IMG/VR virus record: IMGVR_UViG_3300049595_002889
Span: 1-35,666 of that record
DNA length: 35,666 nt
Origin: a virus
Reading direction: 5' to 3' (one strand)
Below the pieces are notes generated by a model that saw only the letters and a program-made list of their open reading frames with translations, was not told where the DNA came from and did no database searches. Position 1 is the first letter of the stretch. Each line of letters begins with the position of its first letter. The translations under genes were made by a program, and so were the position numbers. Shown piece after piece: positions 2,525 to 26,216 of this stretch.

Positions 2525-2581
2525 GGGGCGGGAGCGCAGCGGAGTCCAACTTTCGACGGGAAGACTCCAGCGCCCCGCCCC
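2525..2581 (+). repeat. Long GC-rich hairpin upstream of exonuclease gene
   Basis: An inverted repeat pairs GGGGCGGG (2525-2532) with CCCGCCCC (2574-2581), GCGC (2534-2537) with GCGC (2570-2573), and GGAGTC (2541-2546) with GACTCC (2563-2568), giving about 18 base pairs. No T-run follows, so it does not look like an intrinsic terminator. It is followed at once by the AACACAGAAC leader of the next gene, the same arrangement seen at 10458 and 10771. Confidence 0.7.
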
Positions 2582-2583
2582 GC

Positions 2584-2595
2584 AACACAGAACAC
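2584..2595 (+). promoter_or_regulatory. AACACAGAACAC leader element before exonuclease
   Basis: AACACAGAACAC lies 8 bases upstream of ATG 2604 and directly after the 2525-2581 hairpin. There is no Shine-Dalgarno sequence. The same core recurs immediately before the starts at 10252, 10520 and 10817, so it is probably a shared translation or mRNA-leader signal. Confidence 0.5.
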
Positions 2596-2603
2596 GTATT
2601 GCA

Positions 2604-3446
2604 ATGGCTATACTAACAAAGCCGTCAACCAACGGCTCGCACTGGTATTCATTGGACGGCAAGCCCGTCCACACGCTGCCCACCAAGGACGGCGAAGGCA
2701 CGCGCTCCACGACCCTTCGTGACGCGCGCAAAATGGGGTTGCTGCCTTCAGTGACCAACATCATCGGCCTGCTCGACAAGCCGCAACTAACCAAATGGAA
2801 AATGAGGGAATCGGCCAAGGCCGCGCTCAACGTGCCGCCGCCGCAGGGCGAGGAACCGCTGGATCGGTTTGCCGACCGCGCCATTGAGTTTGCCATGACC
2901 CAAGTGAGCGAAGCCGCCGACCTCGGCAGCCGCATCCACGGGGCCATTGAGAACATCATCCGGGGCAGCGCCGAACAGCCGAGCGAGGAGATCGTGCCTT
3001 ACATCAAGCCCGTGGTCGCATGGATGCGCGAGGTCGGCATCCGCGTCACGCATAGCGAGATCGTCTTGGTCAACCCGATCCACGGCTACGCGGGGCGGGT
3101 CGATGCGCTCTTCACGTGGGGCGAACACGATGCGCCGAACATGGGCATCTTGGACTTCAAGACCAAAAAGACGAAGCCGGATGACAAGATCGAGGCCTAC
3201 GACGAGCACGTTTTGCAGTTGGCCGCTTACGCTGCCGTGCATTACGGGCCGGACTACCTCGACCGCGTTCTCGCGGCCAACCTCTTCATCTCGTCCACCG
3301 AACCGGGGCGAATGGAAGTGGTTAAGCACGACAAGGCGCGGCTGGTCGAGGCGTATCACGCCTTCTGCCAGATGTGTGCCATCTGGAGATTCCGCAAGGG
3401 CTACGACCCGCGACCGGAGGAGCATCGGGAAAGGAGAGCGGCGTGA
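2604..3446 (+). CDS. RecB/Cas4-like PD-(D/E)XK exonuclease
   Basis: 280 residues. The RecB-family nuclease motifs appear in order: LGSRIH (His112), SEIVL (Glu152), GYAGRVDAL (Asp167), GILDFKTKK (Asp184-x-Lys186), and QLAAY (Gln205 and Tyr209). This is the full set expected for a phage recombination exonuclease that degrades one strand from double-stranded ends. It follows the ssDNA-binding-like gene, the usual pairing in phage recombination modules. The start is ATG 2604, preceded by a hairpin and a CA-rich leader instead of a Shine-Dalgarno site. A role in repair-type replication or end processing is inferred; the nuclease fold is well supported. Confidence 0.82.
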   Translation: MAILTKPSTNGSHWYSLDGKPVHTLPTKDGEGTRSTTLRDARKMGLLPSVTNIIGLLDKPQLTKWKMRESAKAALNVPPPQGEEPLDRFADRAIEFAMTQVSEAADLGSRIHGAIENIIRGSAEQPSEEIVPYIKPVVAWMREVGIRVTHSEIVLVNPIHGYAGRVDALFTWGEHDAPNMGILDFKTKKTKPDDKIEAYDEHVLQLAAYAAVHYGPDYLDRVLAANLFISSTEPGRMEVVKHDKARLVEAYHAFCQMCAIWRFRKGYDPRPEEHRERRAA

Positions 3447-4391: not shown

Positions 4392-5284
4392 AGGCCGACA
4401 GCAAATTCCTCTCATGGTGCCGCAACATGAACCGCCGCAAGCGGGTGGCATCGTCTATGCACTCGCAGATTTATTCGTGGGCGTGCTTGTTGCGAGATGA
4501 CGGCATCGGCCACGCCCGCGCTTATCACATCATCCGCAAGATGTGTGACGCGGTGCGGGAGGACACGGCGCGCTTTACCCCGGATCGGGAAATCCTTGGG
4601 GCCATACAAGACGCTTTCGAGGTCACGCCGTCCACCGGGACGCAGCGCGCGCGGCCTTGGCCGATCCCGAACCGCACTTTGCAGGGCGAGTGCCGCCGCC
4701 TCTCGCAGCGCCGGAATTGGACGCTGGCGCAGTTGCGGGAAGTGTCGGCCCTTGCGCCTGCCGATGCCGAGAAGACACCGCCACGGTGGTTTTTGCAGCA
4801 TTTGCTCGGCAATGACCCGCTGATCTGTGTCGGCACGGGCGTCCACAAGTTTGAGACGGACTTGCTCTCGACGTTTTTGGAGTGGCGGCTTGCGTCTTAC
4901 GAGTTCGTTGTGCCGAACGCGATGTCGGCTCCGATGGGCAAGCGTAAGTCGGACGGCGAGATGTCGGCTCACACCCTCGACAACACGGGGCCACGGCAAA
5001 ACATCGTCGTGGAGTTCGATGACGGGGCGACCTTGGACGAGCAAGCGGCCCGTCACATCTGGCTGAGTGAACTGCGCGACCTCCGCATGGTGGTGTTCAG
5101 CGGCAGCAAGTCCCTGCACGGCTGGTATCGGGCGCGGGACGAGCAGTCGGATCGGCAATTCATGGAACACGCCGTGCGCCTCGGTGCTGACCCGAAGACA
5201 TGGCTGCGCTCGCAGTTTGTGCGCCTGCCCAACGGGCGGCGGGAGGATGGAACAACCCAACAAGTTTACTTTTTCGATGCGTAA
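4388..5284 (+). CDS. Primase-like (archaeo-eukaryotic primase fold) protein
   Basis: 298 residues from GTG 4388. The C-terminal half shows the expected spacing of a prim-pol type catalytic core: NIVVEFDDG (acidic pair Glu209 and Asp211), VVFSGSKSLHGWYRA with His244, and SQFVRLPNGRREDG about 35 residues later. The N-terminal 130 residues are basic and helical (NMNRRKRVASSMHSQIYSWA) and may bind DNA or the helicase. The next gene is a RepA-like helicase, a common partner for such primases. The reading as a primase is by motif pattern; the first acidic residue is Glu instead of the usual Asp. Confidence 0.62.
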   Translation: MKADSKFLSWCRNMNRRKRVASSMHSQIYSWACLLRDDGIGHARAYHIIRKMCDAVREDTARFTPDREILGAIQDAFEVTPSTGTQRARPWPIPNRTLQGECRRLSQRRNWTLAQLREVSALAPADAEKTPPRWFLQHLLGNDPLICVGTGVHKFETDLLSTFLEWRLASYEFVVPNAMSAPMGKRKSDGEMSAHTLDNTGPRQNIVVEFDDGATLDEQAARHIWLSELRDLRMVVFSGSKSLHGWYRARDEQSDRQFMEHAVRLGADPKTWLRSQFVRLPNGRREDGTTQQVYFFDA

Positions 5285-6473
5285 CTTAGCCAAAGCCCAA
5301 CCCATAGGCGAAGCCGCCTTTCACGAAACTGCCCACATGGACGAGGGCGATGCCGCCCCAACCAATGTGACGCGCCTGCCCGCGCCCGACGATATGGGCG
5401 ACGATGCCCTGCCCGATTGGGTGGACGGCAATGAATTGATTGCCTACGAGGCCGAGTCGCCAGAAATCTTGATCGCTGGCCCCGATGGCAGCGAGGACGG
5501 GGCCATGCTGCGCCGGGGGTCGAAGCTGGTGGTGGGAGGGTCTTCCAAGATGGGCAAGACTTGGACACTGATCGACTTGGCACTCGCCGTGGCGGCGGGG
5601 GGCAAGTGGCTCGGTCACTTTCAGTGCCGTCAAGGGCCAGTGCTCTACGTCAATCTGGAGCTACGCAAGCACACGGCGGGCAAGCGGGTGCGGTGGATCG
5701 CGGAGAAGCGCGGCTACTGCAAGGGCATGGGGCTGAAACCGGAGATCAGTGCCGCCCTCAAGACATGGAACTTGCGCGGCAAGTGCTACGACCTCCCCAC
5801 GATGCTGGAGACGGCCCGCATGAGGCTTAAAGACCCTGCCGCACCCAAGTTCGCCCTCATTATCCTTGACCCGCTCTACAAGACGTTGGGAGGCCGCGAC
5901 GAGAACTCGGCGGGGGAGATGGCGACCTTGATGCTGGAGTTGGAGCAGTTTGCCGACGAGTGCAATGCGGCCATCGCCTTTGCCGCCCACTTTAGCAAGG
6001 GCAACCAGAGCGGCAAGGACGCCATTGACCGTATCAGCGGCAGCGGGGTCATTGCCCGCGACCCGGATGCCATCCTCACCTTCACCCCGCATGAGCAGGA
6101 GGATTGCTTCACGCTGGATTCCATCTTGCGGGAGTTCCCGCCTTTGCCGCCGACCGTCATGCAGTGGGAGGCACCCGTGCTGTGTCCAAGGATCGACCTC
6201 GACCCCGACAAGCTGCGGCAACCCGGCAAGAGCGTGGACACATTCGGGCCGCGTGCCGATGCCATCTTGCAAGTGCTGCAAGAAGCGGGACGCCCCGTGC
6301 CAAGCAGCGAACTCATCACGCGGGCCAAGGCCATCACTAAGGACGAGTATAGCGATGGCGCGTGGAAGCAGTCGATCAACCGCCATGCCAACACGCTTAA
6401 GCGCATGGGCATTGAGAAGGTTAATAACGCAACCAAGGAGGCCGTTTTTCGGATTAACAATGACCCGTTCTAA
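5277..6473 (+). CDS. RepA-like AAA replicative helicase
   Basis: 398 residues from ATG 5277 (8-base overlap with the primase-like gene). The ATPase core is clear: Walker A GGSSKMGKTW (Lys94), Walker B ALIILDP (Asp199), and a downstream FAAHFSKGNQSGKDAIDRIS segment with the His and Ser/Gly residues typical of AAA_25/RepA hexameric helicases. The C-terminal 80 residues form a winged-helix-like domain (RADAILQVLQEAGRPVPSSE). Probably unwinds phage DNA for replication. An alternative ATG at 5247 has GGGAGG touching it with no spacer; I prefer 5277 but am not certain. Confidence 0.78.
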   Translation: MRNLAKAQPIGEAAFHETAHMDEGDAAPTNVTRLPAPDDMGDDALPDWVDGNELIAYEAESPEILIAGPDGSEDGAMLRRGSKLVVGGSSKMGKTWTLIDLALAVAAGGKWLGHFQCRQGPVLYVNLELRKHTAGKRVRWIAEKRGYCKGMGLKPEISAALKTWNLRGKCYDLPTMLETARMRLKDPAAPKFALIILDPLYKTLGGRDENSAGEMATLMLELEQFADECNAAIAFAAHFSKGNQSGKDAIDRISGSGVIARDPDAILTFTPHEQEDCFTLDSILREFPPLPPTVMQWEAPVLCPRIDLDPDKLRQPGKSVDTFGPRADAILQVLQEAGRPVPSSELITRAKAITKDEYSDGAWKQSINRHANTLKRMGIEKVNNATKEAVFRINNDPF

Positions 6474-7138: not shown

Positions 7139-7750
7139 ATGACCACAAGAGAGCTTGCGGCGGCACTTGGCCGCTCCCACGTTACTGTTGCCAAAGACAT
7201 CCGCGCCGGGATGCCCTCCGATTCTCCCGAAGCCGCGCAAGCGTGGCGACGAGCCAACCGCCGCGCCCGCATCGACAGCGCCACAACCCGCCGTCCTGCC
7301 GGGGGCAAGCCCGAAAAACCGAGCGGAGTAGTCCATACCAAGCTGCCGACCTACGATCCAGAGGGCGGGCCGCAGGAACTGGAGCGCCTGCAAGCCATCG
7401 TGATCCGCTGCATGGAAGCCGCCGAGCAATCCGCTTCGACCGCCGAGCTTGCCGCCGCCAACCGCGCGCTCAAAGAGGCCCGCGATACCGTCCGCATCGC
7501 CAAGCGCGACATGGCCGAGACGGAGATTGAGGCGGGCAACTTGATTCGGCGCGACGATGTGCTGGCCGTCTTCAACGAATTTTTGGGCAAGGCGCGGGCC
7601 TTGGTCGAGTCCATGCCGCAGGAGTTGGCGGCACAGTGCAACCCGTCCGATCCGCAGTTGTCGGCCAACGTCATGACCGATTGGTCGAACAACAAATACA
7701 TGGTCACCATGAGCCAGCCGCCCGATGTCCTTGCCGTGGATCAAGTCTGA
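7139..7750 (+). CDS. terS: Terminase small subunit (Nu1-like)
   Basis: 203 residues. The N-terminus is a helix-turn-helix of the Nu1 type (MTTRELAAALGRSHVTVAKD, then IRAGMPSD), followed by AAQAWRRANRRAR and a basic linker. A long helical oligomerisation region (residues about 80-140) precedes a C-terminal part with RRDDVLAVFNEFLGKARALV. This is the expected layout of a DNA-recognising small terminase. The large terminase gene begins 26 bases before its stop, which supports the call. It presumably recognises the packaging site, perhaps the repeats just upstream. Confidence 0.8.
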   Translation: MTTRELAAALGRSHVTVAKDIRAGMPSDSPEAAQAWRRANRRARIDSATTRRPAGGKPEKPSGVVHTKLPTYDPEGGPQELERLQAIVIRCMEAAEQSASTAELAAANRALKEARDTVRIAKRDMAETEIEAGNLIRRDDVLAVFNEFLGKARALVESMPQELAAQCNPSDPQLSANVMTDWSNNKYMVTMSQPPDVLAVDQV

Positions 7751-9536
7751 CCGCCGCTGGATTTGGGAAGCGGCGTGTGCAACCCATAAGCCGCACCAAG
7801 ACCAGACCGTGACGCAGTGGGCCGAGGCTCACATCGAACTGCCGCGCGGCATGACGAGCGCGCCGGGGCCGTTTCGCACGGCCATGTTCCCCTACATGAA
7901 CGAGCCGATGGATGCGTTCCATCCCAAGAGCGGCGTCCGCAAGATGACGCTGATATGGGCCGCGCAGTCCAACAAATCGACGGCCATTATGCTTGGCATT
8001 GCCTACCGCCTCGACCGATCGCCCGCGCCGACTTTGTGGGTCATGGACAACAGCCGCAACGCGCAGAGCTTTAGCGAATCGAGATGGCAACGACTCGTCG
8101 AGGCCAACGCCGTCCTCGCCAAGCACAAGCCGAGCGACCCCGACAAATTCAAAAACATGGAGATGCACTTCAACTCCATGCCGCTTTGGTTCGCGGGCAG
8201 CAACAGTCCGGGCAACCTGGCGTCACGCAGTGTGGGACTTTTGGTCATGGACGAAGCTGGAAAATATCCCGCCAAGGCGCGCGGCGAAGCGTCGAGCGTG
8301 CAGTTGGCGATTCAACGCACGACGAGCTATCCGATGCACTTGATCGTCATCACCACGACTCCGGTGACGCCCGATGAAGCCGCGTGGCAGAGCTACCTTG
8401 AGAGCGACCAACGCCGCTACTTCATGCCCTGCCCGCACTGCCGCGAGCTAATCACTTTCGAGCAGTCCATGCTCAAGTGGGATCAGTCCGCGCGGCAGGA
8501 GGATGGATCGTGGGACTTGAAAGCCGTCCGCAATAGCGCACGCATGGAATGTCCGAAGTGTGCGGGCGTGATCCGAGACGGGGCCAAGACCGTGATGCTG
8601 CGCGAGGGGCGATGGGTTGCGACCAATGACGCGGCCATGCCGGGGAATGTCGGCTACCACTTGAACGGCTTTTATTCGCCCCGCCGCACCTTCGGCAACC
8701 TTGCCGTCAAGTTCTTGCAGGACAAGCAATCGCTCATGGGCTTGCAGGACTACGTGAACAGCGTCCTTGCCGAGCCGTGGGAAGATGACGCCGAGAAAGA
8801 GCAAGAGACACCGCGCACGGCGAGCGACTACTTGATGGGCGACCGATGGGACGAGGCCGATTTCAGCGCCATGACCATTGACGTTCAAGACGCGGGTGGT
8901 CGGCACTTTTGGGTTGTTATCCGTGATTGGTCAAAAGACGGGCGCAGCCGGGGGCGATGGGCGGGGCGCGTCGAGACATGGGATGATCTGGAGCGCATCC
9001 GCGCCGAGAATGAAATCCGCCAGCCGTGCGTGTTTGTCGATAGCGCCTTCGCCACCCGCGAGGTTTATTTCATGTGCTGCCGCTTCGGATGGGTTTCCCT
9101 GCGCGGATCGGACAACGAGAGCTTCACATGGATCGACGGCGGCAAGCGTGTGCAGCGCGCCTATGCCAAGCCAGAGCGCGGCGATCCTGCGGGCGGTGGA
9201 CGTTGGGACGCTGGCACGTTGCCGCGCAGGAATTGTCCGGTGATTAAATTCAGCGCGCCGACTTGCGAAGACATCCTTGCCGCGTTGCGTCGAACCGATC
9301 CGCCGCGATGGGAGTTCCCGCGCGACTTCCCCGTCGATTGGCATCAGCACATGGCAAGCACGGTGAAGAAGCGCGTCCGCAATGCCGCCACCGGAGCAGT
9401 GTCATACAAATGGGTAGTGCCGAAGGGCAAAGACAATCACTTGCGCGACTGCGAAAAAATGCAAGTGGTCGCGGCCTTACTTGCCCGCGTCTTGACCCCC
9501 GCCGCCGAGCGCCCCAAAGAGAAGGCAACCCCGTAA
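7725..9536 (+). CDS. terL: Terminase large subunit (lambda gpA family)
   Basis: 603 residues, a typical length for the gpA family. The ATPase half has a Walker A position at AAQSNKSTA (Lys84), Walker B GLLVMDEAG (Asp176, Glu177), and an ITTTPVTPDE coupling segment. A zinc knuckle pair follows (CPHC 236-239 and CPKC 276-279). The nuclease half has acidic residues at TIDVQDAGG (Asp386), CVFVDSAFAT (Asp439) and NHLRDCEKM near residue 580. It packages and cuts genome DNA into proheads with the small subunit. The Walker A loop lacks the usual Gly before Lys, which is atypical but occurs in this family. Confidence 0.92.
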   Translation: MSLPWIKSDRRWIWEAACATHKPHQDQTVTQWAEAHIELPRGMTSAPGPFRTAMFPYMNEPMDAFHPKSGVRKMTLIWAAQSNKSTAIMLGIAYRLDRSPAPTLWVMDNSRNAQSFSESRWQRLVEANAVLAKHKPSDPDKFKNMEMHFNSMPLWFAGSNSPGNLASRSVGLLVMDEAGKYPAKARGEASSVQLAIQRTTSYPMHLIVITTTPVTPDEAAWQSYLESDQRRYFMPCPHCRELITFEQSMLKWDQSARQEDGSWDLKAVRNSARMECPKCAGVIRDGAKTVMLREGRWVATNDAAMPGNVGYHLNGFYSPRRTFGNLAVKFLQDKQSLMGLQDYVNSVLAEPWEDDAEKEQETPRTASDYLMGDRWDEADFSAMTIDVQDAGGRHFWVVIRDWSKDGRSRGRWAGRVETWDDLERIRAENEIRQPCVFVDSAFATREVYFMCCRFGWVSLRGSDNESFTWIDGGKRVQRAYAKPERGDPAGGGRWDAGTLPRRNCPVIKFSAPTCEDILAALRRTDPPRWEFPRDFPVDWHQHMASTVKKRVRNAATGAVSYKWVVPKGKDNHLRDCEKMQVVAALLARVLTPAAERPKEKATP

Positions 9537-9632
9537 AGCGGTCATTTGCAGGGGTTTAGGGGGGTGAAAAAAAGATGAAAAAAGGTGCGTTTGCTCCTTT
9601 ACAAAGGCAAGCGTTTGGCTTTAATTAGAAGC

Positions 9633-10217
9633 ATGATGAATCAGAAACGCACACTTGAACGCGCGACCATCGTCGGCTTTTTCTCCATCCCCTCTCCGAC
9701 ATTGGCCGAACACAATCCCACCGCTTACGCCGCTGCGATGGCAGGGTTGCCCGAAGGCGCTGGCTCATGCTCTCACTGCGGCATGGGCATTCGTCATCAT
9801 GTCGTGATCCGCGACGAGGACGGCGGCGAGCGTTTCATCGGTTGTATGTGCGCCGAGAAGGTTGGCGTTCCCAAGGCCCGCGAGGCGATTCGCTACCGCA
9901 TGACCACCGAGCAGCTTGCCGCCCGTGATGCCAAACGCGCAGCCGAGCGCGAGGCTTGGCAGCTTGCCGAGCAAAAACGCCAAGACGAGGAGGCCGCGCG
10001 CCTTGCCACCCGCCGCGAGTCGGTCGGCCATCTTGTCGATATGCTGCGCGGTCTTGGCAACTCGTTCTACTCGTCGCTGGCCGAGCAGCTTGCGTTTCGC
10101 CCGCTCTCGTTCCGCCAAGCCGAGTATGTCGCCAAGGCCACATCCGCCACGGGCCGCAGGAACAAGCGCAACGCCGAAGCCTTTGATGCGGTCATCGACC
10201 TCTGCACCACCGCCTAA
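9633..10217 (+). CDS. Hypothetical protein with putative zinc-binding site (194 aa)
   Basis: I choose ATG 9633 (or the ATG right after it), with AGAAG just upstream; a GTG at 9585 is also in frame but has no better context. The N-terminal 80 residues contain SCSHCGMGIRHHVVIRDEDG and then RFIGCMCAEKVG, so a CxxC plus CxC pair separated by about 20 residues could hold one zinc ion. A long charged helix (AKRAAEREAWQLAEQKRQDE) and an AT-rich-free helical C-terminus follow. It begins the accessory region after the terminase. No family name can be given. Confidence 0.6.
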   Translation: MMNQKRTLERATIVGFFSIPSPTLAEHNPTAYAAAMAGLPEGAGSCSHCGMGIRHHVVIRDEDGGERFIGCMCAEKVGVPKAREAIRYRMTTEQLAARDAKRAAEREAWQLAEQKRQDEEAARLATRRESVGHLVDMLRGLGNSFYSSLAEQLAFRPLSFRQAEYVAKATSATGRRNKRNAEAFDAVIDLCTTA

Positions 10218-10240
10218 TTTCCTATCAATCACAACAACCA

Positions 10241-10250
10241 AACACAGAAC
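10241..10250 (+). promoter_or_regulatory. AACACAGAAC leader element
   Basis: AACACAGAAC ends 1 base before ATG 10252. It matches the leaders at 2584, 10505 and 10802 but has no GC hairpin in front; the upstream sequence is CA- and T-rich. Confidence 0.5.
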
Positions 10251-10251
10251 C

Positions 10252-10449
10252 ATGAACATTCAACTGCAACGCCACAACGAAGCGCGCCGTTATGTAAAAA
10301 AGATCGAAGCCAAATACGGTCGCAATGCGCGCATCTGCGACTTGCACACGCACTGGTATATCTACACCCCCGTCCGCGTTGGCCCCGGAATGTGGGGCGT
10401 TCAAGACCGTATGCACTGGAGTGGCAAGTTTCTCCGCGATGCTATCTGA
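10252..10449 (+). CDS. Small hypothetical protein (65 aa)
   Basis: Basic and aromatic: NEARRYVKKIEAKYGRNA followed by HTHWYIYTPVRVGPG and a C-terminal WSGKFLRDAI. The start is ATG 10252 directly after the AACACAGAAC leader; an in-frame ATG at 9916 lies inside the previous gene and is rejected. No family was recognised. Confidence 0.55.
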   Translation: MNIQLQRHNEARRYVKKIEAKYGRNARICDLHTHWYIYTPVRVGPGMWGVQDRMHWSGKFLRDAI

Positions 10450-10457
10450 CCTCCCTC

Positions 10458-10480
10458 CCGCCCCCGCACGCCGGGGGCGG
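10458..10480 (+). repeat. GC-rich hairpin before leader element
   Basis: CCGCCCCCG (10458-10466) pairs with CGGGGGCGG (10472-10480) around a 5-base loop: a perfect 9-bp stem. No T-run follows. It is 24 bases upstream of the AACACAGAACACACA leader of the next gene. Confidence 0.65.
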
Positions 10481-10504
10481 CATGGGACGCCAGACGGCGA
10501 ACCG

Positions 10505-10519
10505 AACACAGAACACACA
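10505..10519 (+). promoter_or_regulatory. AACACAGAACACACA leader element
   Basis: Directly abuts ATG 10520. Together with flanking bases, 10501-10523 is identical to 10798-10820 (23 bases). Confidence 0.6.
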
Positions 10520-10765
10520 ATGACAGCACTAAACAAACCCATCGCCCGCAGGGCGATCACTCGTCCCGCCGCCTACGGTGTGCGCGCCGAGCTTGTCATC
10601 GCCCTTCATCCGGGCGGCATCATCGGCATCCGCGAATGTGGACGCCGCAGCAAGAGCGAGGTCTGCTTCGACGCAGCCGAGCTTTACGTCGAGGGCGTGC
10701 GCCGACGCATCGCCAAGGAACGCGCGGAGAAGCGCAAGGCCCGCATGGCACGGCGCAAGAAATAA
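10520..10765 (+). CDS. Small basic protein (81 aa)
   Basis: Start ATG 10520 directly follows the CA-rich leader; the in-frame ATG at 10325 lies within the previous gene. The core is beta-like (YGVRAELVIALHPGGIIGIRE), followed by SKSEVCFDAAELYVEGVRRR and a strongly basic tail (AEKRKARMARRKK). It may bind nucleic acid. No family was recognised. Confidence 0.6.
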   Translation: MTALNKPIARRAITRPAAYGVRAELVIALHPGGIIGIRECGRRSKSEVCFDAAELYVEGVRRRIAKERAEKRKARMARRKK

Positions 10766-10770
10766 CCACA

Positions 10771-10791
10771 GCGCGGGTCCGACCCCCGCGC
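10771..10791 (+). repeat. GC-rich hairpin before leader element
   Basis: GCGCGGG (10771-10777) pairs with CCCGCGC (10785-10791) around a 7-base loop. No T-run follows. The AACACAGAACACACA leader begins 10 bases later. Confidence 0.6.
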
Positions 10792-10801
10792 ATCAACACC
10801 G

Positions 10802-10816
10802 AACACAGAACACACA
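10802..10816 (+). promoter_or_regulatory. AACACAGAACACACA leader element
   Basis: Directly abuts ATG 10817; second exact copy of the 23-base leader repeat. Confidence 0.6.
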
Positions 10817-11095
10817 ATGAACACAACATCACGCCGCCGCTCCGGTGGCATCAAGATACCGAATCAAGACTCGCTCGCTTTAGGGCGCGTCTTTGATGAC
10901 ACACCCAAGGCCGTGCTCGCCGCGATTGTTTGCAGCGCGTATCGGCAGCTTGGCTTTAAGGACAAGGAACTCAAGGCCCGCATCGCCTACGAGTGGCTCG
11001 CGCTGCACCACAACGAGATCGTGGACAACCCGCCGACCAAGGCGATCCGCGATGAGGCTTGGCACTACAACCCGATGGGCGAGGAGGCACAATGA
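10817..11095 (+). CDS. Hypothetical protein (92 aa)
   Basis: After a short basic N-terminus (MNTTSRRRSGGIKIP) comes a helical domain: PKAVLAAIVCSAYRQLGF, then KELKARIAYEWLALHHNEIV and KAIRDEAWHYNPMG. The start is fixed by the leader repeat just upstream. It overlaps the next gene by ATGA. No function is recognised. Confidence 0.55.
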   Translation: MNTTSRRRSGGIKIPNQDSLALGRVFDDTPKAVLAAIVCSAYRQLGFKDKELKARIAYEWLALHHNEIVDNPPTKAIRDEAWHYNPMGEEAQ

Positions 11096-11277
11096 ACATC
11101 AACGAAATCGCCAACGCCGCCGCGCGTTTTAACGAGCAGCACGACTACGACCTCCCGTCCGCGCTCAAGCTGACCGAGATCATCATCCGCCACGCGCACA
11201 CCGTGCAACTGGCGCGCGTCCAAGCCGCCGATCCGCAACTTGAGTTGCCTATCGACTTAGACACGGAGGCGGCATGA
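11092..11277 (+). CDS. Small hypothetical protein (61 aa)
   Basis: ATG 11092 overlaps the previous stop, and the end overlaps ATG 11274. The sequence is mainly helical (NEIANAAARFNEQHDYDLPS, then KLTEIIIRHAHTVQLARVQ) with an acidic C-terminus. No family was recognised. Confidence 0.55.
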   Translation: MNINEIANAAARFNEQHDYDLPSALKLTEIIIRHAHTVQLARVQAADPQLELPIDLDTEAA

Positions 11278-11405
11278 AACCCGACAAGATCATTCCCTTC
11301 CCCATCAAGCCCGCCGCCCCCAAGGCCGAGCTTGACGAGGCCAAGCCGCAGAACATCATCGTGGTCGAGTTCGACCGGGACGAGTATATCGTGACCGCCG
11401 TATGA
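11274..11405 (+). CDS. Very small protein (43 aa)
   Basis: A 43-residue ORF with ATGA overlaps at both ends (11274 with the upstream stop, 11402 with the downstream start), which supports it as a real gene. The sequence has a Pro/Lys-rich N-terminus (KPDKIIPFPIKPAAPK) and one beta-like segment (NIIVVEFDRDEYIV). The function is unknown. Confidence 0.5.
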   Translation: MKPDKIIPFPIKPAAPKAELDEAKPQNIIVVEFDRDEYIVTAV

Positions 11406-11626
11406 GCAAACAATCCGACATATCGAAAGCCGCCGCCGCCCTTGGCCGCAAAGGCGGGGCGGCAGGCACAGGCAAGGCCAAGGCCCGCAGCAAGGCGCAT
11501 TACTCCGAAGCAGGGAAGAAGTCCGGGGAGGTTCGCCGCCGAAACGCCGAGCTAAAGCGGCTCCTCGTTGAGAAGGGCGGGGTCGATAAGGCGTGGGCGA
11601 AAAAGCATCTTATCGTGGATAGCTGA
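11402..11626 (+). CDS. Small basic KGG-type protein (74 aa)
   Basis: Contains AAALGRKGGAAGTGKAKARS followed by HYSEAGKKSGEVRRRNAELK. The repeated GRKGG/GKKSG turns with Lys and Arg resemble short basic phage and plasmid proteins of the KGG-motif kind, which may bind nucleic acid. ATG 11402 overlaps the preceding stop. The role is inferred from composition only. Confidence 0.55.
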   Translation: MSKQSDISKAAAALGRKGGAAGTGKAKARSKAHYSEAGKKSGEVRRRNAELKRLLVEKGGVDKAWAKKHLIVDS

Positions 11627-11682
11627 CCGGGGGCCATTTGACCGATTTCCGGTTTGTGGTAATCTCCGCGCCATGAGCCTAC

Positions 11683-12306
11683 GTGCCGCCCGGAGTCGTG
11701 ATAACCCACGACTCAAAACACGCTGACCCCGCTGATTACAACGAAGCATCCTGCGGCCCGGAACTGCCGCACGATACTGCGGAAGATTTATTTTTAGACG
11801 CACGCTGTCGCGTAGCCGCTCCCGCGCAGCTTGCGTCTTTCCGCGCCCTGCTGGATTGGTGGTCGCTGGAAGTCTTCAAGGAGTTCTGGAAGGACTACGA
11901 AGCGCAGGAAGGCGGGGGCCAAGCCTCGCGCACCTTCGGGGATGAGGCGGCGATTCGTCTCCTGCAAGCGTTGACCAACTCGCAGACACGGCAGACCGCG
12001 ATGAAGGCGGAATGTTATCTCGCCGTGATCAATCGCAAACCGGAGTCACAGACCGAGATTGCCAAGAAATACGGCGTGACCCGCGCTGCCGTCTCCAAGG
12101 TCATCGTCAGCATCAAAGACGATCTCGACCTCCCGACCGCGCGGCACATGAAAAGTGACACCGCCCGCGAATCATATCGGACCCGCGCCCTGCGGGTTCA
12201 CCAAATACGAAAAGAAAAATTATGCAAACAACCGAACTCCAACTCATACAACCGTCTCTCGACCTTGCGCTCTGCATTGATGCAGGCACTTGTGCCGCAG
12301 AGCTAA
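11683..12306 (+). CDS. HTH-domain DNA-binding protein
   Basis: 207 residues if started at GTG 11683; another GTG at 11698 has GGAG just upstream. No ATG is available near the N-terminus. Residues about 122-145 form a helix-turn-helix (SQTEIAKKYGVTRAAVSKVI) like the recognition module of sigma region 4 or a MarR/LuxR-type HTH. The region before it is helical with aromatic residues (LLDWWSLEVFKEFWKDYEAQ). The C-terminal end overlaps the next gene by 85 bases. It could be a late-gene regulator, given its place between accessory and head genes, or a DNA-binding accessory protein. Confidence 0.55.
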   Translation: MPPGVVITHDSKHADPADYNEASCGPELPHDTAEDLFLDARCRVAAPAQLASFRALLDWWSLEVFKEFWKDYEAQEGGGQASRTFGDEAAIRLLQALTNSQTRQTAMKAECYLAVINRKPESQTEIAKKYGVTRAAVSKVIVSIKDDLDLPTARHMKSDTARESYRTRALRVHQIRKEKLCKQPNSNSYNRLSTLRSALMQALVPQS

Positions 12307-12767
12307 AACGCTGCGCCGACGAAGCTGACCGCTGCGCGGCCCTTGCTCAAGCCGGGGCCGAGCTTGCCATCCGTCACGCATGGAACGCGGGGGCCGTCTG
12401 CCTCAAGGCAAAGGAAGTCGTGCCGCACGGCGAGTTTCAAGAATGGCTTGAGGCTAACGCTGGTGAGCGCGGTATCCGCACTCTGCAAAAATGGATGAAG
12501 CTCGCAAAAACGAATCTGGATTCGCTTTTGAACGAGAACCCGAAGGGACTGAATGACGCTTACCGAATCACAGGCATCCTGCCCGAACCGGAGCCGAAGG
12601 CCGAAGGCGGGGAAGGGGAGAAGGAGCGCCCGCCCTTCACGCTCTCGTTCAAGTCGCAGTATCATCATCCGTCCGAATGGAGCCGCGATGCCGCCCGTGA
12701 TTTTCTCTACGAGTTCGACCGCTTGGCGAAACTGGCAATGCAACTCAAGACGGAGTTTGGCTTGTGA
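12222..12767 (+). CDS. DUF3102-like protein
   Basis: 181 residues. The middle reads AIRHAWNAGAVCLKAKEVVP, HGEFQEWLEANAGERGIRTL and QKWMKLAKTN, which fits the DUF3102 pattern (a helix with Ala-Gly, then HGEF-x-WLE and an R-T-x-Q-x-x-M-K-x-A segment). Such domains occur in phage and plasmid proteins of unknown or regulatory role. The C-terminal part is less conserved and contains an acidic linker. It overlaps the upstream HTH gene by 85 bases and the next small gene by GTGA. The assignment is by pattern only. Confidence 0.55.
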   Translation: MQTTELQLIQPSLDLALCIDAGTCAAELKRCADEADRCAALAQAGAELAIRHAWNAGAVCLKAKEVVPHGEFQEWLEANAGERGIRTLQKWMKLAKTNLDSLLNENPKGLNDAYRITGILPEPEPKAEGGEGEKERPPFTLSFKSQYHHPSEWSRDAARDFLYEFDRLAKLAMQLKTEFGL

Positions 12768-12886
12768 ACGACCAACCGCGCGGGAGCATGGCAATCCCGA
12801 TCTTCCTGTTCTGCTTCGCCGCCTTGGGCTTTGTCTGGTCGGTCGAGGCGACTTGCAAGGTAGTCTTGCGACTGCTTGGCCTTTGA
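12764..12886 (+). CDS. Very small membrane protein (40 aa)
   Basis: GTG 12764 overlaps the upstream TGA (GTGA). Residues about 9-27 (MAIPIFLFCFAALGFVWSV) make one strong transmembrane segment. The TGA stop lies inside the TTGACA motif of the next gene. The role is unknown; a small phage membrane protein. Confidence 0.5.
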   Translation: MNDQPRGSMAIPIFLFCFAALGFVWSVEATCKVVLRLLGL

Positions 12887-12888
12887 CA
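12883..12888 (+). promoter_or_regulatory. TTGACA start-associated motif (gpW-like gene)
   Basis: TTGACA followed by 13 bases and then ATG 12902. Confidence 0.5.
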
Positions 12889-12901
12889 GTTTGGCAAAAG
12901 C

Positions 12902-13147
12902 ATGGCGCGTTCTGATTTTTACGGCTTACCAACGGCGACTCTTACCGAGTTGCGGGATGAGTATGTTGCCGCGATCAAAGCGATTGCCACCAATGGCGTC
13001 AGCTATTCCATCGGGGGCCGCAGCCTGTCCCGCGCCAATCTGACCGAGATGCGGAACACGCTTGGCGACATCACTGCCGCCCTCGACCGCGCTTCCGGTA
13101 GTCGCCGCCGCACGACCTACGCTTCCTTCGCGGGCGTCCGCTCATAA
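12902..13147 (+). CDS. gpW-like head-tail connector
   Basis: 81 residues. The pattern ELRDEYVAAIKAIATNGVSY, then SIGGRSLSRANLTEMRNTLG and RASGSRRRTTYASF fits the gpW family: a first helix, a beta-hairpin around SYSIGG, a second helix, and a short basic tail. gpW acts at the head-tail junction after packaging. It lies just before the portal gene, as expected. The start ATG 12902 is fixed by the TTGACA motif; the stop overlaps the portal ATG by one base. Confidence 0.7.
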   Translation: MARSDFYGLPTATLTELRDEYVAAIKAIATNGVSYSIGGRSLSRANLTEMRNTLGDITAALDRASGSRRRTTYASFAGVRS

Positions 13148-15003
13148 TGAACCTTGTTGACCAGACCATCGCCCTGTTCAGCCCCCGCGCAGCCCTGCGC
13201 CGGGAGGTTGCGCGGCAGAAGCTAACGGCCTTCTCGCGCTTCGACGCGGCCAAGATTACCCGCGCCCGCCCGCAGGCCCGCCAGAATATGCCCGCCGAGC
13301 AGATCGGGGGAACGACTGAGCGCATTCGGTTAATGAACCGCGCCCGCGACTTAGACGATAACTTTTCCACGGTAAGGGCGATATTGACCCACTTCGTCAT
13401 TCACACGGCAGGCACACTTTCCTACCAAGCTCGCACGGGCGACACGGCCCTCGACCAAGACGTTGAGGCGTATCTGAATCAGTGGTTCGCCAACTGCGAC
13501 TTGACCGGACGCCATTCGCTCCTTTGCCTTACGCAACTCGTCTTCCGCGCTGTCCTTGTCGATGGCGATTGCGGTGTGATCCTTGTCCGTGACGGGGATG
13601 ACCTCAAACTTCAGACGGTGACCGCCGACAGGATCGGGCGGGACATCGACCTCGACCTTAACGACCCTGCCTATATCGGCGGGGTGCAGATCGACCCGCG
13701 CGGGCGTCCGCTTAAATACCGCGTGTATGAGCGCGACCGCTCCGGGCGTTATCTGAACTTTGAGGAAATCGACGCGGAGAACTTCTGCCACATTGCCAAC
13801 TTCACCCGCCCCGACGAATACCGGGGCCGCTCGGTTCTCGCCCCGATGCTCGATGACGCGCAGGACGTTGCTGACTTGATCGAATACGAAAAGCTCGCTG
13901 CGCGTTGGGCTTCTTCACAGGCGGGCGTGGTCAAGACCGAATACGGCGCGGACGAGGAACTTGCTTCCGTGCTGCGCGGGGAGAAAGATCAATTCGGCAA
14001 TGAGATCAAACTGACGGCGCTGGAGCCGGGGCGCATTAACTATCTGAACACGGGCGAGAGCATGGAGATGTTCAAGAGCGGCGACCGTCCTGCCGCCGCC
14101 TTCGCCAACTTCGTGCAATACTTGGAGAACCGGATGTGTCGCGCCCTTGGTGCTTCCGCTCGCGTTATCCTCGACCGCACCAGCGCAGGCCCGGAAGCGC
14201 GCAAAGACCTTCGCCAAGCCGAGCGCACGTTCGACTTCTGGCGCTATCAGTTGGAGGCGCAATTCTTGAACAAGGTGGTGCGCCTTGCCTTGATGGATGC
14301 CGCCGCCAAGCGACTCCTGCCGAACCGCCCCGAAGTCACACTCGGTCAATGGCAATGGCCGGGATCGGTCAGCATTGACGCGGGGCGTGATGCTCGCGCC
14401 GACATCGAACTCTGGCGCATGGGCCTTGCTACCGCTGCGGAACTTTACGGCGAGGCGGGCCACGATTGGCAGGCCAGCATGAGACAGCGCGCCAAGGAGG
14501 CGGCGTATATCCGCGAGCTTGCGGAAGAAATGGACGTAAGCCCTGCCGAGATTAGCGGAGGCAAAGAGTCTATCGCTACCGATCCCAACCGCGCCCCGGT
14601 GACCGCCCCCGTGCCGTCCGCACCGGAGCAGGAGCTATCGCAGTTTGCGATCCCCAAAAAATACGCGCACATCAATTTTAAGCCAACCGCCGCCCTCGCG
14701 GTCGAGGCCAAGCGCGGCCTTGAGTGGCGCGAGGAATACGGACGCGGAGGAACGGAAGTCGGAGTCGCCCGTGCGCGTGACTTGATGAACCGCGCGAATC
14801 TTTCACCGGACACGATTCGCCGCATGAATAGCTATTTTGCCCGTCACGAAGTCGATAAGCAGGGCGAAGGATTTAAGCCGGGGCAGGACGGTTATCCGTC
14901 CGCTGGCCGTATCGCATGGGCCTTGTGGGGCGGCGATGCGGGCGCGTCATGGGCTGCGGCCCGCGCGGCACAGATGGATGCCGTCGATGACGATGAAGGC
15001 TAA
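13147..15003 (+). CDS. Portal protein with fused C-terminal domain
   Basis: 618 residues, longer than a typical gpB-type portal. Residues about 1-480 match the lambda gpB family: IRLMNRARDLDDNFSTVRAI, LVFRAVLVDGDCGVILVRDG, DRSGRYLNFEEIDAENFCHI, ASSQAGVVKTEYG and RKDLRQAERTFDFWRYQ. The portal forms the dodecameric ring through which DNA is packaged. Residues about 510-605 form an extra domain with RGLEWREEYGRGGTEVGVAR, RARDLMNRANLSPDTIRRMN, SYFARHEVD and GRIAWALWGGDAGASWA. This is a domain I recognise from other phage proteins where it has no known function. A linker rich in Pro and Glu joins them. Confidence 0.85.
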   Translation: MNLVDQTIALFSPRAALRREVARQKLTAFSRFDAAKITRARPQARQNMPAEQIGGTTERIRLMNRARDLDDNFSTVRAILTHFVIHTAGTLSYQARTGDTALDQDVEAYLNQWFANCDLTGRHSLLCLTQLVFRAVLVDGDCGVILVRDGDDLKLQTVTADRIGRDIDLDLNDPAYIGGVQIDPRGRPLKYRVYERDRSGRYLNFEEIDAENFCHIANFTRPDEYRGRSVLAPMLDDAQDVADLIEYEKLAARWASSQAGVVKTEYGADEELASVLRGEKDQFGNEIKLTALEPGRINYLNTGESMEMFKSGDRPAAAFANFVQYLENRMCRALGASARVILDRTSAGPEARKDLRQAERTFDFWRYQLEAQFLNKVVRLALMDAAAKRLLPNRPEVTLGQWQWPGSVSIDAGRDARADIELWRMGLATAAELYGEAGHDWQASMRQRAKEAAYIRELAEEMDVSPAEISGGKESIATDPNRAPVTAPVPSAPEQELSQFAIPKKYAHINFKPTAALAVEAKRGLEWREEYGRGGTEVGVARARDLMNRANLSPDTIRRMNSYFARHEVDKQGEGFKPGQDGYPSAGRIAWALWGGDAGASWAAARAAQMDAVDDDEG

Positions 15004-17946: not shown

Positions 17947-17972
17947 ACGACTGTTCTGTGTGTTCACTAAGA

Positions 17973-17997
17973 CCCCGCCCGAAAGGGCGGGGTTTTT
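17973..17997 (+). terminator. Rho-independent terminator after major capsid gene
   Basis: CCCCGCCC (17973-17980), loop GAAA, GGGCGGGG (17985-17992), then TTTTT (17993-17997). The perfect 8-bp GC stem and T-run make this the clearest terminator in the window. It separates the head genes from the glycosyltransferase cassette. Confidence 0.9.
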
Positions 17998-24182: not shown

Positions 24183-26216
24183 ATGGCTGACGTAACATCC
24201 ACATTTGCGGCAAAAGATGTCGGGTTCACTTCTACGGTGAACCGGATGCAGCGCAGCTTGGCCGGATTTCAAAGCGGCATTGCCGGATTTGCCGCCAAGG
24301 CAGCGGGACTCGTCACGGCATTTGTCGGTATTCAGCAGTCGGTCGCCGCTTTTAACAAGGCGTTAAGCATGGGCGGACGCCTCGATGACCTGTCCAAGAC
24401 GACCGGAGCCACGGCGGGCGAATTGTTATTGCTCGAAAAAGCCTTTGAGTTGGCGGGTTCTTCGACAGACGCGGTTGGCCCTGCGATTGCGCGCCTCAAC
24501 CGCTTTATGGTCGAGGCCAGCAACGGGGGCGCAGCGCAAGTCGAGACGATGAACAAGCTCGGCTTGTCTTACGATCAACTCAAAGGCCGCACCCCGACCG
24601 AGCAAATGCAACTGCTTGCCAAAAGCATTATGGCACTGCCGACCCCGGCGCAGCGCACGGCGGCGGCGATGGACATTTTCGGACGCAGTGGCAGCACGCT
24701 TATCCCGCTGTTCGCCAACTTTTCCGGTGAACTCGACAAGGCGCAAGGCTATCTCGGTTCTTTGCCGGGGCTGATGGATCAAAGCGCGGGCGCAATGGCG
24801 GACATGGAAGACGACATCGGCGCGCTGGGCGACAAGTTCAATCAATTCGTCGCGGGCTTGATTGCCGGGGCAGCGGGCGCAGACAACTTTGCTTCGGCCC
24901 TTGCCAAGATCGACACAGCGGGGATCGGCGCAAACCTTGGAGAATCCTTGCGCGTGGCCTTTGATGCCCCGCACGAAACGGCCAAGGCGATTGGCTATAC
25001 GCTTCTGACCGGAGCAAAGCAGGCTGGCAACAACCTAATCAATGCCTTTTCTGCGGCTATCGAATTCTTTCAAAAAGTCTATGGCGACCCCGAATATTGG
25101 TCTGGAGTAGGACAACGAATCAAAAGCGTATTTATGGAGGCGGTCAATGCCTTTAACAAGTTGCTGCTTACGGGCGTCGAACAAGGATTGTTAAAGCCGC
25201 TATCTAACCTCCCCGGAATTATTGGCGACCCTTTCCGCGAGGCGCTTAAATCGGTTGAAAGCATCCGCACCGGATTAGAAGCAACCAGTCAAAAAAATTA
25301 CGACGATTGGACTAAAAGCGGAGAAAAAATTCAATCGGCTATTGAACGCGCGGCTTCAACTACCGAAGTTATTGAAAAAGACTGGCTCGGCGTAGAGCAA
25401 TCTGCCGCCGATGCCGCGCGTAATTTTTTAGACGCACAAGAAGCAAGCGCGGCTATCCGCGACAACTCCGCCGAGACGGCAAAGAATTTTGGCGAGGGAA
25501 GCGCAGCTATCCGCTCCGCCTTGGAAGACATTCGCGGCTTTGACCTCAAGGGCGAAATGGGACCGGATGCCCGACCGGATTGGACAAAATCCACTAAGCC
25601 GCCGCCAGAAAACTCCAGCCAACGCATCGCCAACGAAGAAGCCAACGCCCGCGCACTTTACGGTCCGCGCGGCGGAGGCACAACCGCGCCACCGACCGAA
25701 GGTATGCGCGCGGCCATGCTGCGCGGCGAAAGTCGCGGCAACCGCGCGAGGCAGCGCGGCAATGAATTAGCTGAAGCGGGAATGAATCGAAGCGCCGTCC
25801 GCGCCTTCGATCAAGCCGACAGGCTGGCGGGTCTTGCCGCAGAAAACCAACGTGTGCGGGATTTTTATGGCTCCGAGTTTGGAGCAGGCAACGCGGGCGA
25901 GGCTTTTGGTGAGTTTCGTGATATGTTTGGCGGTCTAAATAGCAAGAGCTTAATTGAAAAAGGCCTTAAAGACGCGGGCCTCAAATACGACCCGACCCGC
26001 GACGAGCAGGCAAACTTTGATCGCTTGGCGCGCGAGCAATCCAAAACCCCAGAAGAACGCAAACGCGAAGAAGAAGCCATGCGCGAAAAAAGCCGCCCGC
26101 CCGGAGGCGGAGGAGGCGACTCGGATGCAAGCATTTTGCAGACCATTCAAAGCACTCTGTCCGACTTCAAGTCATCTATGGAGAACAGACTGCCGCAAGT
26201 AGTAATGGGAACTTAA
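24183..26216 (+). CDS. Tape measure protein
   Basis: 677 residues, the second longest protein here, directly after the tail chaperones. The N-terminal part is a helical repeat region (STVNRMQRSLAGFQSGIAGF, AAKAAGLVTAFVGIQQSVAA) with hydrophobic segments, followed by FELAGSSTDAVGPAIARLNR and TAAAMDIFGRSGSTLIPLFA, typical of tape measure domains. The C-terminal half is charged, helical and disordered, with a Gly-rich stretch (SRPPGGGGGDSDAS). It sets tail length and may reach the membrane during infection. The ATG is 10 bases after the previous stop. Confidence 0.85.
   Translation: MADVTSTFAAKDVGFTSTVNRMQRSLAGFQSGIAGFAAKAAGLVTAFVGIQQSVAAFNKALSMGGRLDDLSKTTGATAGELLLLEKAFELAGSSTDAVGPAIARLNRFMVEASNGGAAQVETMNKLGLSYDQLKGRTPTEQMQLLAKSIMALPTPAQRTAAAMDIFGRSGSTLIPLFANFSGELDKAQGYLGSLPGLMDQSAGAMADMEDDIGALGDKFNQFVAGLIAGAAGADNFASALAKIDTAGIGANLGESLRVAFDAPHETAKAIGYTLLTGAKQAGNNLINAFSAAIEFFQKVYGDPEYWSGVGQRIKSVFMEAVNAFNKLLLTGVEQGLLKPLSNLPGIIGDPFREALKSVESIRTGLEATSQKNYDDWTKSGEKIQSAIERAASTTEVIEKDWLGVEQSAADAARNFLDAQEASAAIRDNSAETAKNFGEGSAAIRSALEDIRGFDLKGEMGPDARPDWTKSTKPPPENSSQRIANEEANARALYGPRGGGTTAPPTEGMRAAMLRGESRGNRARQRGNELAEAGMNRSAVRAFDQADRLAGLAAENQRVRDFYGSEFGAGNAGEAFGEFRDMFGGLNSKSLIEKGLKDAGLKYDPTRDEQANFDRLAREQSKTPEERKREEEAMREKSRPPGGGGGDSDASILQTIQSTLSDFKSSMENRLPQVVMGT

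What the first reader, a model, noticed from the sequence alone, without database searches (positions are those of the whole stretch)
10441..10820. Repeated GC hairpin plus AACACAGAAC leader before accessory and exonuclease genes
Hairpins at 2525-2581, 10458-10480 and 10771-10791 are each followed by an AACACAGAACAC-type leader and an ATG (2604, 10520, 10817); 10252 has the leader without the hairpin. The 23 bases 10501-10523 and 10798-10820 are identical. No T-run follows any hairpin and no Shine-Dalgarno is present. This differs from the TTGACA signal used by late genes. Inference: an RNA stability, processing or translation module copied with small genes.
Basis: seen in the sequence. Interest (0 to 1): 0.68.

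Follow-up and report, generated by a model that had tools for sequence, protein, structure and literature searches.

The report
Phage start-codon tag plus unrelated hairpins
In a family of uncultured tailed phages, the small exchangeable genes next to the DNA-packaging gene share a ten-base tag touching the start codon that appears to replace the usual ribosome-binding site, while the hairpins seen with it are separate elements, one at a gene-exchange joint and one covarying RNA hairpin before an exonuclease gene.

Summary
The sequence observation is correct; the idea of one copied hairpin-plus-leader module is only partly right. (1) AACACAGAAC is a start-associated sequence. In the terL-portal intervals of 21 related phages it occurs 51 times on the gene strand and never on the other strand, and all 51 touch a start codon: 30 lie 0-5 nt before ATG, 21 begin 2 nt after it, behind a conserved promoter. 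Leader-type starts have no Shine-Dalgarno and are unstructured. I read it as a CA/ACA-type translation signal; function is inferred. (2) The three hairpins are not copies of one another. Element B (10446-10493) is a single-copy stem-loop, nearly invariant across phages whose TerL identity falls to 22-39%, lying between many different upstream and downstream genes that reassort across it. Element A (2525-2581) precedes the exonuclease in all 19 relatives, with three compensated stem versions and one fixed cap, CAACUUUCGACGGGAA, which also caps unrelated stems in other phages; the leader is absent there. The third hairpin was found only here. (3) The 23-base repeat is two copies of the post-B leader. 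Closest known kind: SAS/ESAS of Cluster K mycobacteriophages.

The parts
2525..2581 (+). Element A: hairpin before the exonuclease gene; outer stem, 5' bulge CAAC, UUUC/GGAA helix, GACG tetraloop
   Evidence: z -5.87; present before the orthologous exonuclease in 19 of 19 relatives; three compensated stem versions
2582..2603 (+). Exonuclease leader: GCAA...TTGC mini-hairpin; here its middle reads ACAGAACACGT, in relatives CCTTGCG or similar, so AACACAGAAC at 2584 is a local variant
2604..3446 (+). PD-(D/E)XK exonuclease gene
   Evidence: phrog_298 2.8e-27; PF12705
7725..9536 (+). terminase large subunit, left anchor of the accessory interval
   Evidence: phrog_15 2.9e-97
9598..9626 (+). Promoter-like TTTACA-N17-TTAATT after terL, counterpart of the conserved promoter of class II starts in relatives
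10241..10250 (+). AACACAGAAC leader, 1 nt before ATG 10252; no hairpin
10252..10449 (+). small accessory ORF, 65 aa, no family match
10446..10493 (+). Element B: conserved imperfect hairpin starting at the stop codon of the upstream gene; conservation runs on to about 10503
   Evidence: sharp-edged conservation in 36 contigs; one copy per contig between terL and portal; gene families on both sides reassort
10505..10519 (+). AACACAGAACACACA leader before ATG 10520
10520..10765 (+). small accessory ORF, 81 aa (family D5); also directly after Element B in L184, L207 and L218
10771..10791 (+). Hairpin C, 7 bp, found in no other contig; a similar but different hairpin precedes a related gene in L084
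10795..10816 (+). leader with iterated GAACACA units, second copy of the 23-base repeat
10817..11095 (+). small accessory ORF, 92 aa (family D12); first gene after Element B in L189 and L195 (98% identical, TerL 40%)
11092..11277 (+). MNINEIA gene: SD start here, but the AACACAGAAC leader in L004 and a one-mismatch form of it in L147
13147..15003 (+). portal protein, right anchor of the accessory interval
   Evidence: phrog_21 1e-48

Best explanation
AACACAGAAC is a phage-borne start-associated sequence that replaces the Shine-Dalgarno at the starts of exchangeable accessory genes between terL and portal. As an unstructured CA/ACA-rich stretch touching the AUG (0-5 nt before it at internal starts, 2 nt after it at near-leaderless starts behind a TTTACA-N17-TAAATT-type promoter) it most likely raises 30S or 70S binding without anti-SD pairing. 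The hairpins are separate. Element B is an intercistronic stem-loop without a U-tract that closes the upstream message, probably as a stability, processing or insulating structure, and gives phages a shared joint across which small genes are swapped, probably by homologous recombination. Element A is an RNA leader hairpin of the exonuclease with a fixed cap. Shown: start linkage, strand bias, absence of SD, openness, covariation of A, reassortment at B. Inferred: enhancement of translation, RNA-level role of B, the recombination route, any partner of A's cap.
For: 51 forward and 0 reverse-complement, reversed or complemented copies in 75 kb of terL-portal sequence from 21 phages; 0 in 99 kb after the portal; all 51 touch an ATG, with only 7 one-mismatch forms near an ATG. 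Unique leader-type starts: 0 of 20 have anti-SD energy <= -5, and mean unpaired probability is 0.85 against 0.46 for other starts. The same gene starts with an SD when tight behind another gene and with this leader when free-standing. The motif serves unrelated gene families. Precedent: ACA motifs enhance translation, and CA repeats do so even downstream of AUG (PMC3879156; PMC9031893). Element B: U1, U2, U6 and U8 each pair with both D0 and D3; D0 is 95-96% identical across TerL of 32-39%, yet 67% between L191 and L192 whose TerL is 97% identical. Element A: for each 5' arm its own 3' arm folds best.
Against: No expression data. The copies share ancestry, so 51 is not 51 independent events, and exact identity could reflect spread by recombination alone. 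The host is unknown and some genes of this phage do have strong SDs, so the host is not simply SD-blind. The 18-base leader is not enriched in 84,980 cellular species. Promoter and near-leaderless readings rest on sequence alone. Element B shows almost no stem variation, so its RNA role has no covariation support.
Confidence: 0.6

Rival explanations
1. Conserved boundary (linker) sequences only: the leader and Element B are kept because homologous recombination at them swaps genes, not because they act on expression.
For: Gene families reassort across Element B while it stays constant; the 23-base repeat fits a joint; the N-terminal tag DNA ACGGGCGCGGGGAACACCACCGCCGCG is identical before unrelated proteins.
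Against: A neutral joint need not touch the start codon on either side at fixed short distances, avoid structure, or swap places with an SD at one gene.
Confidence: 0.17
2. DNA operator: the 10-mer is bound by a phage or host regulator overlapping the start region, as was preferred for the ESAS inverted repeats of Cluster K mycobacteriophages.
For: Non-palindromic, iterated GAACACA units and fixed orientation; one class sits just downstream of a promoter.
Against: Most leader-type copies are internal to an apparent operon, with no sigma-70-like match next to those in the window, and the motif follows the start codon rather than a promoter.
Confidence: 0.13
3. One copied RNA module, hairpin plus leader, acting together in RNA processing.
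For: In the window three of four leaders follow a hairpin; L084 has a hairpin plus an A/C-rich leader before a related gene; L146, L155 and L194 have a hairpin before the MNINEIA gene.
Against: The hairpins are unrelated in sequence and shape, and A and the leader come apart in all 19 exonuclease relatives. Most leader copies in relatives have no Element B next to them, since B is single-copy.
Confidence: 0.07
4. The hairpins are intrinsic transcription terminators.
For: Position after stop codons.
Against: No U-tract on the + strand, while a hairpin with a T-run exists in the same genome at 17969-17996.
Confidence: 0.03

Closest known systems
Start-Associated Sequences (SAS) and Extended SAS (ESAS) of Cluster K mycobacteriophages (PMC3203893)
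   Same: Short asymmetric repeat, almost always in one orientation, a few nt before ATG, before genes of many families, confined to one genome region, absent or rare in host genomes; about half carry an inverted repeat just upstream.
   Different: SAS contains an SD core (AGGAG) and lies only upstream; here there is no SD and the motif also occurs 2 nt after ATG behind a promoter. ESAS repeats lack support for RNA pairing and share a consensus; here Element A has compensatory support and the hairpins are unrelated to each other. No sequence similarity between the motifs.
ACA / CA-repeat translational enhancers of enteric bacteria (PMC3879156; Martin-Farmer and Janssen 1999, cited in PMC9031893)
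   Same: CA/ACA-rich stretch near AUG, effective upstream or downstream, loose spacing.
   Different: Those are tested elements in enteric bacteria, the ACA cases together with an SD; here an exact 10-mer is shared by many unrelated phage genes and no test was done.
Conserved boundary sequences at mosaic junctions (discussed in PMC3029335)
   Same: Short conserved DNA at joints between exchanged genes.
   Different: Element B is a fixed, single-copy hairpin at one locus with strong reassortment on both sides.
Accessory-gene hotspots of P2-like phages and satellites (PMC9122126, abstract only)
   Same: Variable gene content at a fixed site.
   Different: Here the genes tested are mostly tiny, have no match in the defence library, and share start signals.

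Membership tests
Start-associated sequence (Cluster K SAS) | short asymmetric repeat in one orientation within a few nt of starts of genes of many families | tested here: met
   51 forward, 0 reverse copies, all touching ATG, many families
Start-associated sequence (Cluster K SAS) | consensus GGGATAGGAGCCC with an SD core | tested here: not met
   AACACAGAAC; 0 of 20 leader-type starts with anti-SD energy <= -5
ESAS | 17-bp imperfect inverted repeat with a shared consensus just upstream of SAS | tested here: not met
   hairpins A, B and C differ from each other
CA/ACA translational enhancer | CA/ACA-rich sequence next to AUG | tested here: met
CA/ACA translational enhancer | raises translation when present, lowers it when replaced | not testable with these tools
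   needs a reporter assay
Conserved boundary sequence | constant sequence between gene modules that reassort | tested here: met
   all four combinations of flanking families; sharp left edge of conservation
Integron attC site | many copies per array, one after each cassette gene | tested here: not met
   Element B is single-copy per contig
Integron attC site | integron integrase in the same element | not tested
   no specific search was run
Intrinsic terminator | GC hairpin followed by a U-tract | tested here: not met
   no + strand terminator call at B or C; one exists at 17969-17996; no T-run after A by reading
Known Rfam RNA family | match at gathering score | tested here: not met
   no match for the window; sub-threshold matches only for Element A

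The most novel reading that the evidence does not exclude
The phage group carries its own start-codon marking system, with AACACAGAAC for accessory genes and TTGACA-N13/14-ATG for late genes, read by a phage or host factor instead of the anti-Shine-Dalgarno, and CAACUUUCGACGGGAA is a recurrent hairpin cap that unrelated phages use to bind a common RNA-binding partner.
Probability: 0.15. Interest if true: 0.8.

Novelty: new variant of a known kind. Interest (0 to 1): 0.52.

Why it matters
How genes without a Shine-Dalgarno find their start codon, and how swapped-in phage genes are expressed at once in a new genome, are open questions. A start signal that sits on either side of AUG, is shared by many unrelated small genes and replaces an SD at the same gene gives a natural set of constructs to test both. 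It also gives a practical handle for annotating tiny phage genes, and Element A adds a covarying RNA hairpin that no Rfam family matches.

Tried and rejected
Near-identity search of the phage collection with 9000-14000: no match. Distant searches with Elements B and A alone: only a weak Gordonia phage match for B, none for A. Rfam: none at gathering score, only chance-level matches otherwise. TerL alignment against GTDB genomes: no relative, so the host was not identified; named phages with a TerL match include Akkermansia phage Moulinsart at 33.5%, which is only a hint. Exact 18-base leader in GTDB genomes: 4 hits in cyanobacteria, Treponema and Bacteroidales, about chance, so no evidence for a host-wide signal. 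Relaxed cap search (one or both changes in the inner helix): 14 further contigs, none with a flanking stem of 2 bp or more, which supports the exact cap rather than a looser family. Three contigs with the 19-base Element B core (L153, L156, L162) share one unrelated context and were dropped. Integron attC and terminator readings rejected (membership test). No literature hit for the cap in a relevant paper.

Full report
What the window is. It is an IMG/VR virus record of 35,666 bases from a tailed phage: terminase small and large subunits (7139-7750, 7725-9536), portal (13147-15003), tape measure (24183-26216), an exonuclease (2604-3446), a RusA-like resolvase (1565-1978) and a primase/helicase-like AAA protein (5067-6473). 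The host is unknown.

The observation. All coordinates in the finding hold. The three hairpins fold well beyond shuffles, the leader copies are beyond chance, and the 23-base repeat is exact. The hairpins are not related to one another, which is the key to what follows.

The leader. I fetched related virus records through TerL, the exonuclease and short DNA patterns. In 21 distinct terL-portal intervals (75 kb) AACACAGAAC occurs 51 times forward and 0 times as reverse complement, reversed or complemented; in 99 kb after the portal it does not occur. Thirty copies lie 0-5 nt before an ATG (class I). The other 21 begin 2 nt after an ATG, as ATG[A/G][A/G]AACACAGAAC, and mostly encode M(K/R)TQN at the start of otherwise different proteins (class II). 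Nearly all class II starts follow CTTTACAAA-GCAAGCGGTTG-CTTAAATTG-like sequence, a TTTACA-N17-TAAATT-type promoter whose expected start lies within a few nt of the ATG (inference). L209 is an exception with a CA-rich upstream sequence. Unique class I starts have no SD (0 of 20 at -5 kcal/mol or below) and mean unpaired probability 0.85, against 0.46 at other starts. The MNINEIA gene is informative: SD start when tight behind another gene (window, L218), the leader in L004 and a one-mismatch form in L147, and a hairpin plus short leader in L146, L155 and L194. This is what one expects of a translation start signal. ACA motifs enhance translation in enteric bacteria (PMC3879156), and CA repeats downstream of AUG enhance leadered and leaderless translation (PMC9031893). 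Some Verrucomicrobia are reported as SD-scarce (PMC10783764), but I could not show that the host is one.

Element B. The block 10446-10493 starts at the stop codon of the upstream gene and forms one imperfect hairpin. It is present once per contig, 350-1640 nt after TerL, in phages whose TerL is 22-100% identical to the window's. L197, with TerL 99% identical, lacks it. A search that left the hairpin free found only one new contig (L218), so the stem is essentially invariant. Conservation drops sharply at the left edge. Clustering gave at least 13 upstream and 11 downstream gene families, and several upstream families each occur with both D0 and D3. D0, a DUF932 protein, is 95-96% identical between phages with TerL at 32-39%, whereas L191 and L192 have TerL 97% and D0 67% identical. 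Genes are therefore swapped across this joint. The gene at 10817 is the first gene after B in L189 and L195 (98% identical, TerL 40%), which explains the 23-base repeat: two genes, each with its post-B leader, now stand in a row. What B does as RNA is not shown; it has no U-tract.

Element A. All 19 exonuclease relatives at 75-85% identity carry a hairpin at the same place, in three stem versions that are each self-complementary; for each 5' arm its own 3' arm folds best. RNAalifold on the sequence alignment reports only two pairs changed on both sides, partly because one version is a base shorter and falls out of register. The apex is CAACUUUCGACGGGAA in all but L090 (and its duplicate L091), which has CGAC and a U-A in place of U-G, keeping the inner helix. 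The AACACAGAAC leader is in none of these relatives; in the window it is a local variant between conserved GCAAC and ATTGC. The more distant exonuclease relatives (34-41%, L101-L108) lack the hairpin. The same 16-base cap sits on unrelated stems in a group before an HNH endonuclease gene (L121, L123, L127, L128, L131, L134) and before a gene in records resembling Acinetobacter phages (L144, L145), and perhaps in L137; 14 contigs with a cap changed in the inner helix have no such stem. This is a lead, not a family.

Known kinds. The closest are the SAS/ESAS of Cluster K mycobacteriophages (PMC3203893): a start-linked repeat in one orientation, before genes of many families, with an inverted repeat at half of them. 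They differ in having an SD core, lying only upstream, and lacking RNA-pairing support. I therefore call this a new variant of a known kind.

Limits. Copies are related by descent; gene starts are predicted; no RNA data were available; host not found; IMG/VR records may be fragments.

Noticed in passing
window 7119, 12883, 15079, 15645, 16134, 18005, 20884, 21706, 28136, 34833; relatives after the portal: TTGACA occurs 10 times forward and 0 times reverse in the window, always with an ATG 7-16 nt downstream; in 21 phages of the group 69 forward and 3 reverse, 59 of 69 with ATG 13-17 nt downstream. A second start-linked signal for late genes with no room for a -10 box before ATG.
   Followed up: partly
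L184, L185, L186, L193, L209, L218 and others, first about 60 nt of class II genes: Unrelated small proteins share an N-terminal tag M(K/R)TQNTTTGAGNTTAA; the DNA coding TGAGNTTAA is identical in all seven hits of a degenerate search, so it looks conserved as DNA/RNA rather than as protein.
   Followed up: partly
L121, L127, L144, L145, L137: The hairpin cap CAACTTTCGACGGGAA recurs on unrelated stems in unrelated phages.
   Followed up: partly
window 2582-2603 and L082-L100: A mini-hairpin GCAA...TTGC lies directly before the exonuclease ATG and is kept while its loop changes.
   Followed up: no
window 17969-17996: Strong hairpin followed by a T-run after the 16984-17946 gene, the clearest intrinsic terminator of the stretches scanned.
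   Followed up: no
window 31958-32000 and 32087-32129: 43-base direct repeat, 95% identical, 129 bases apart inside the 1158-residue ORF.
   Followed up: no
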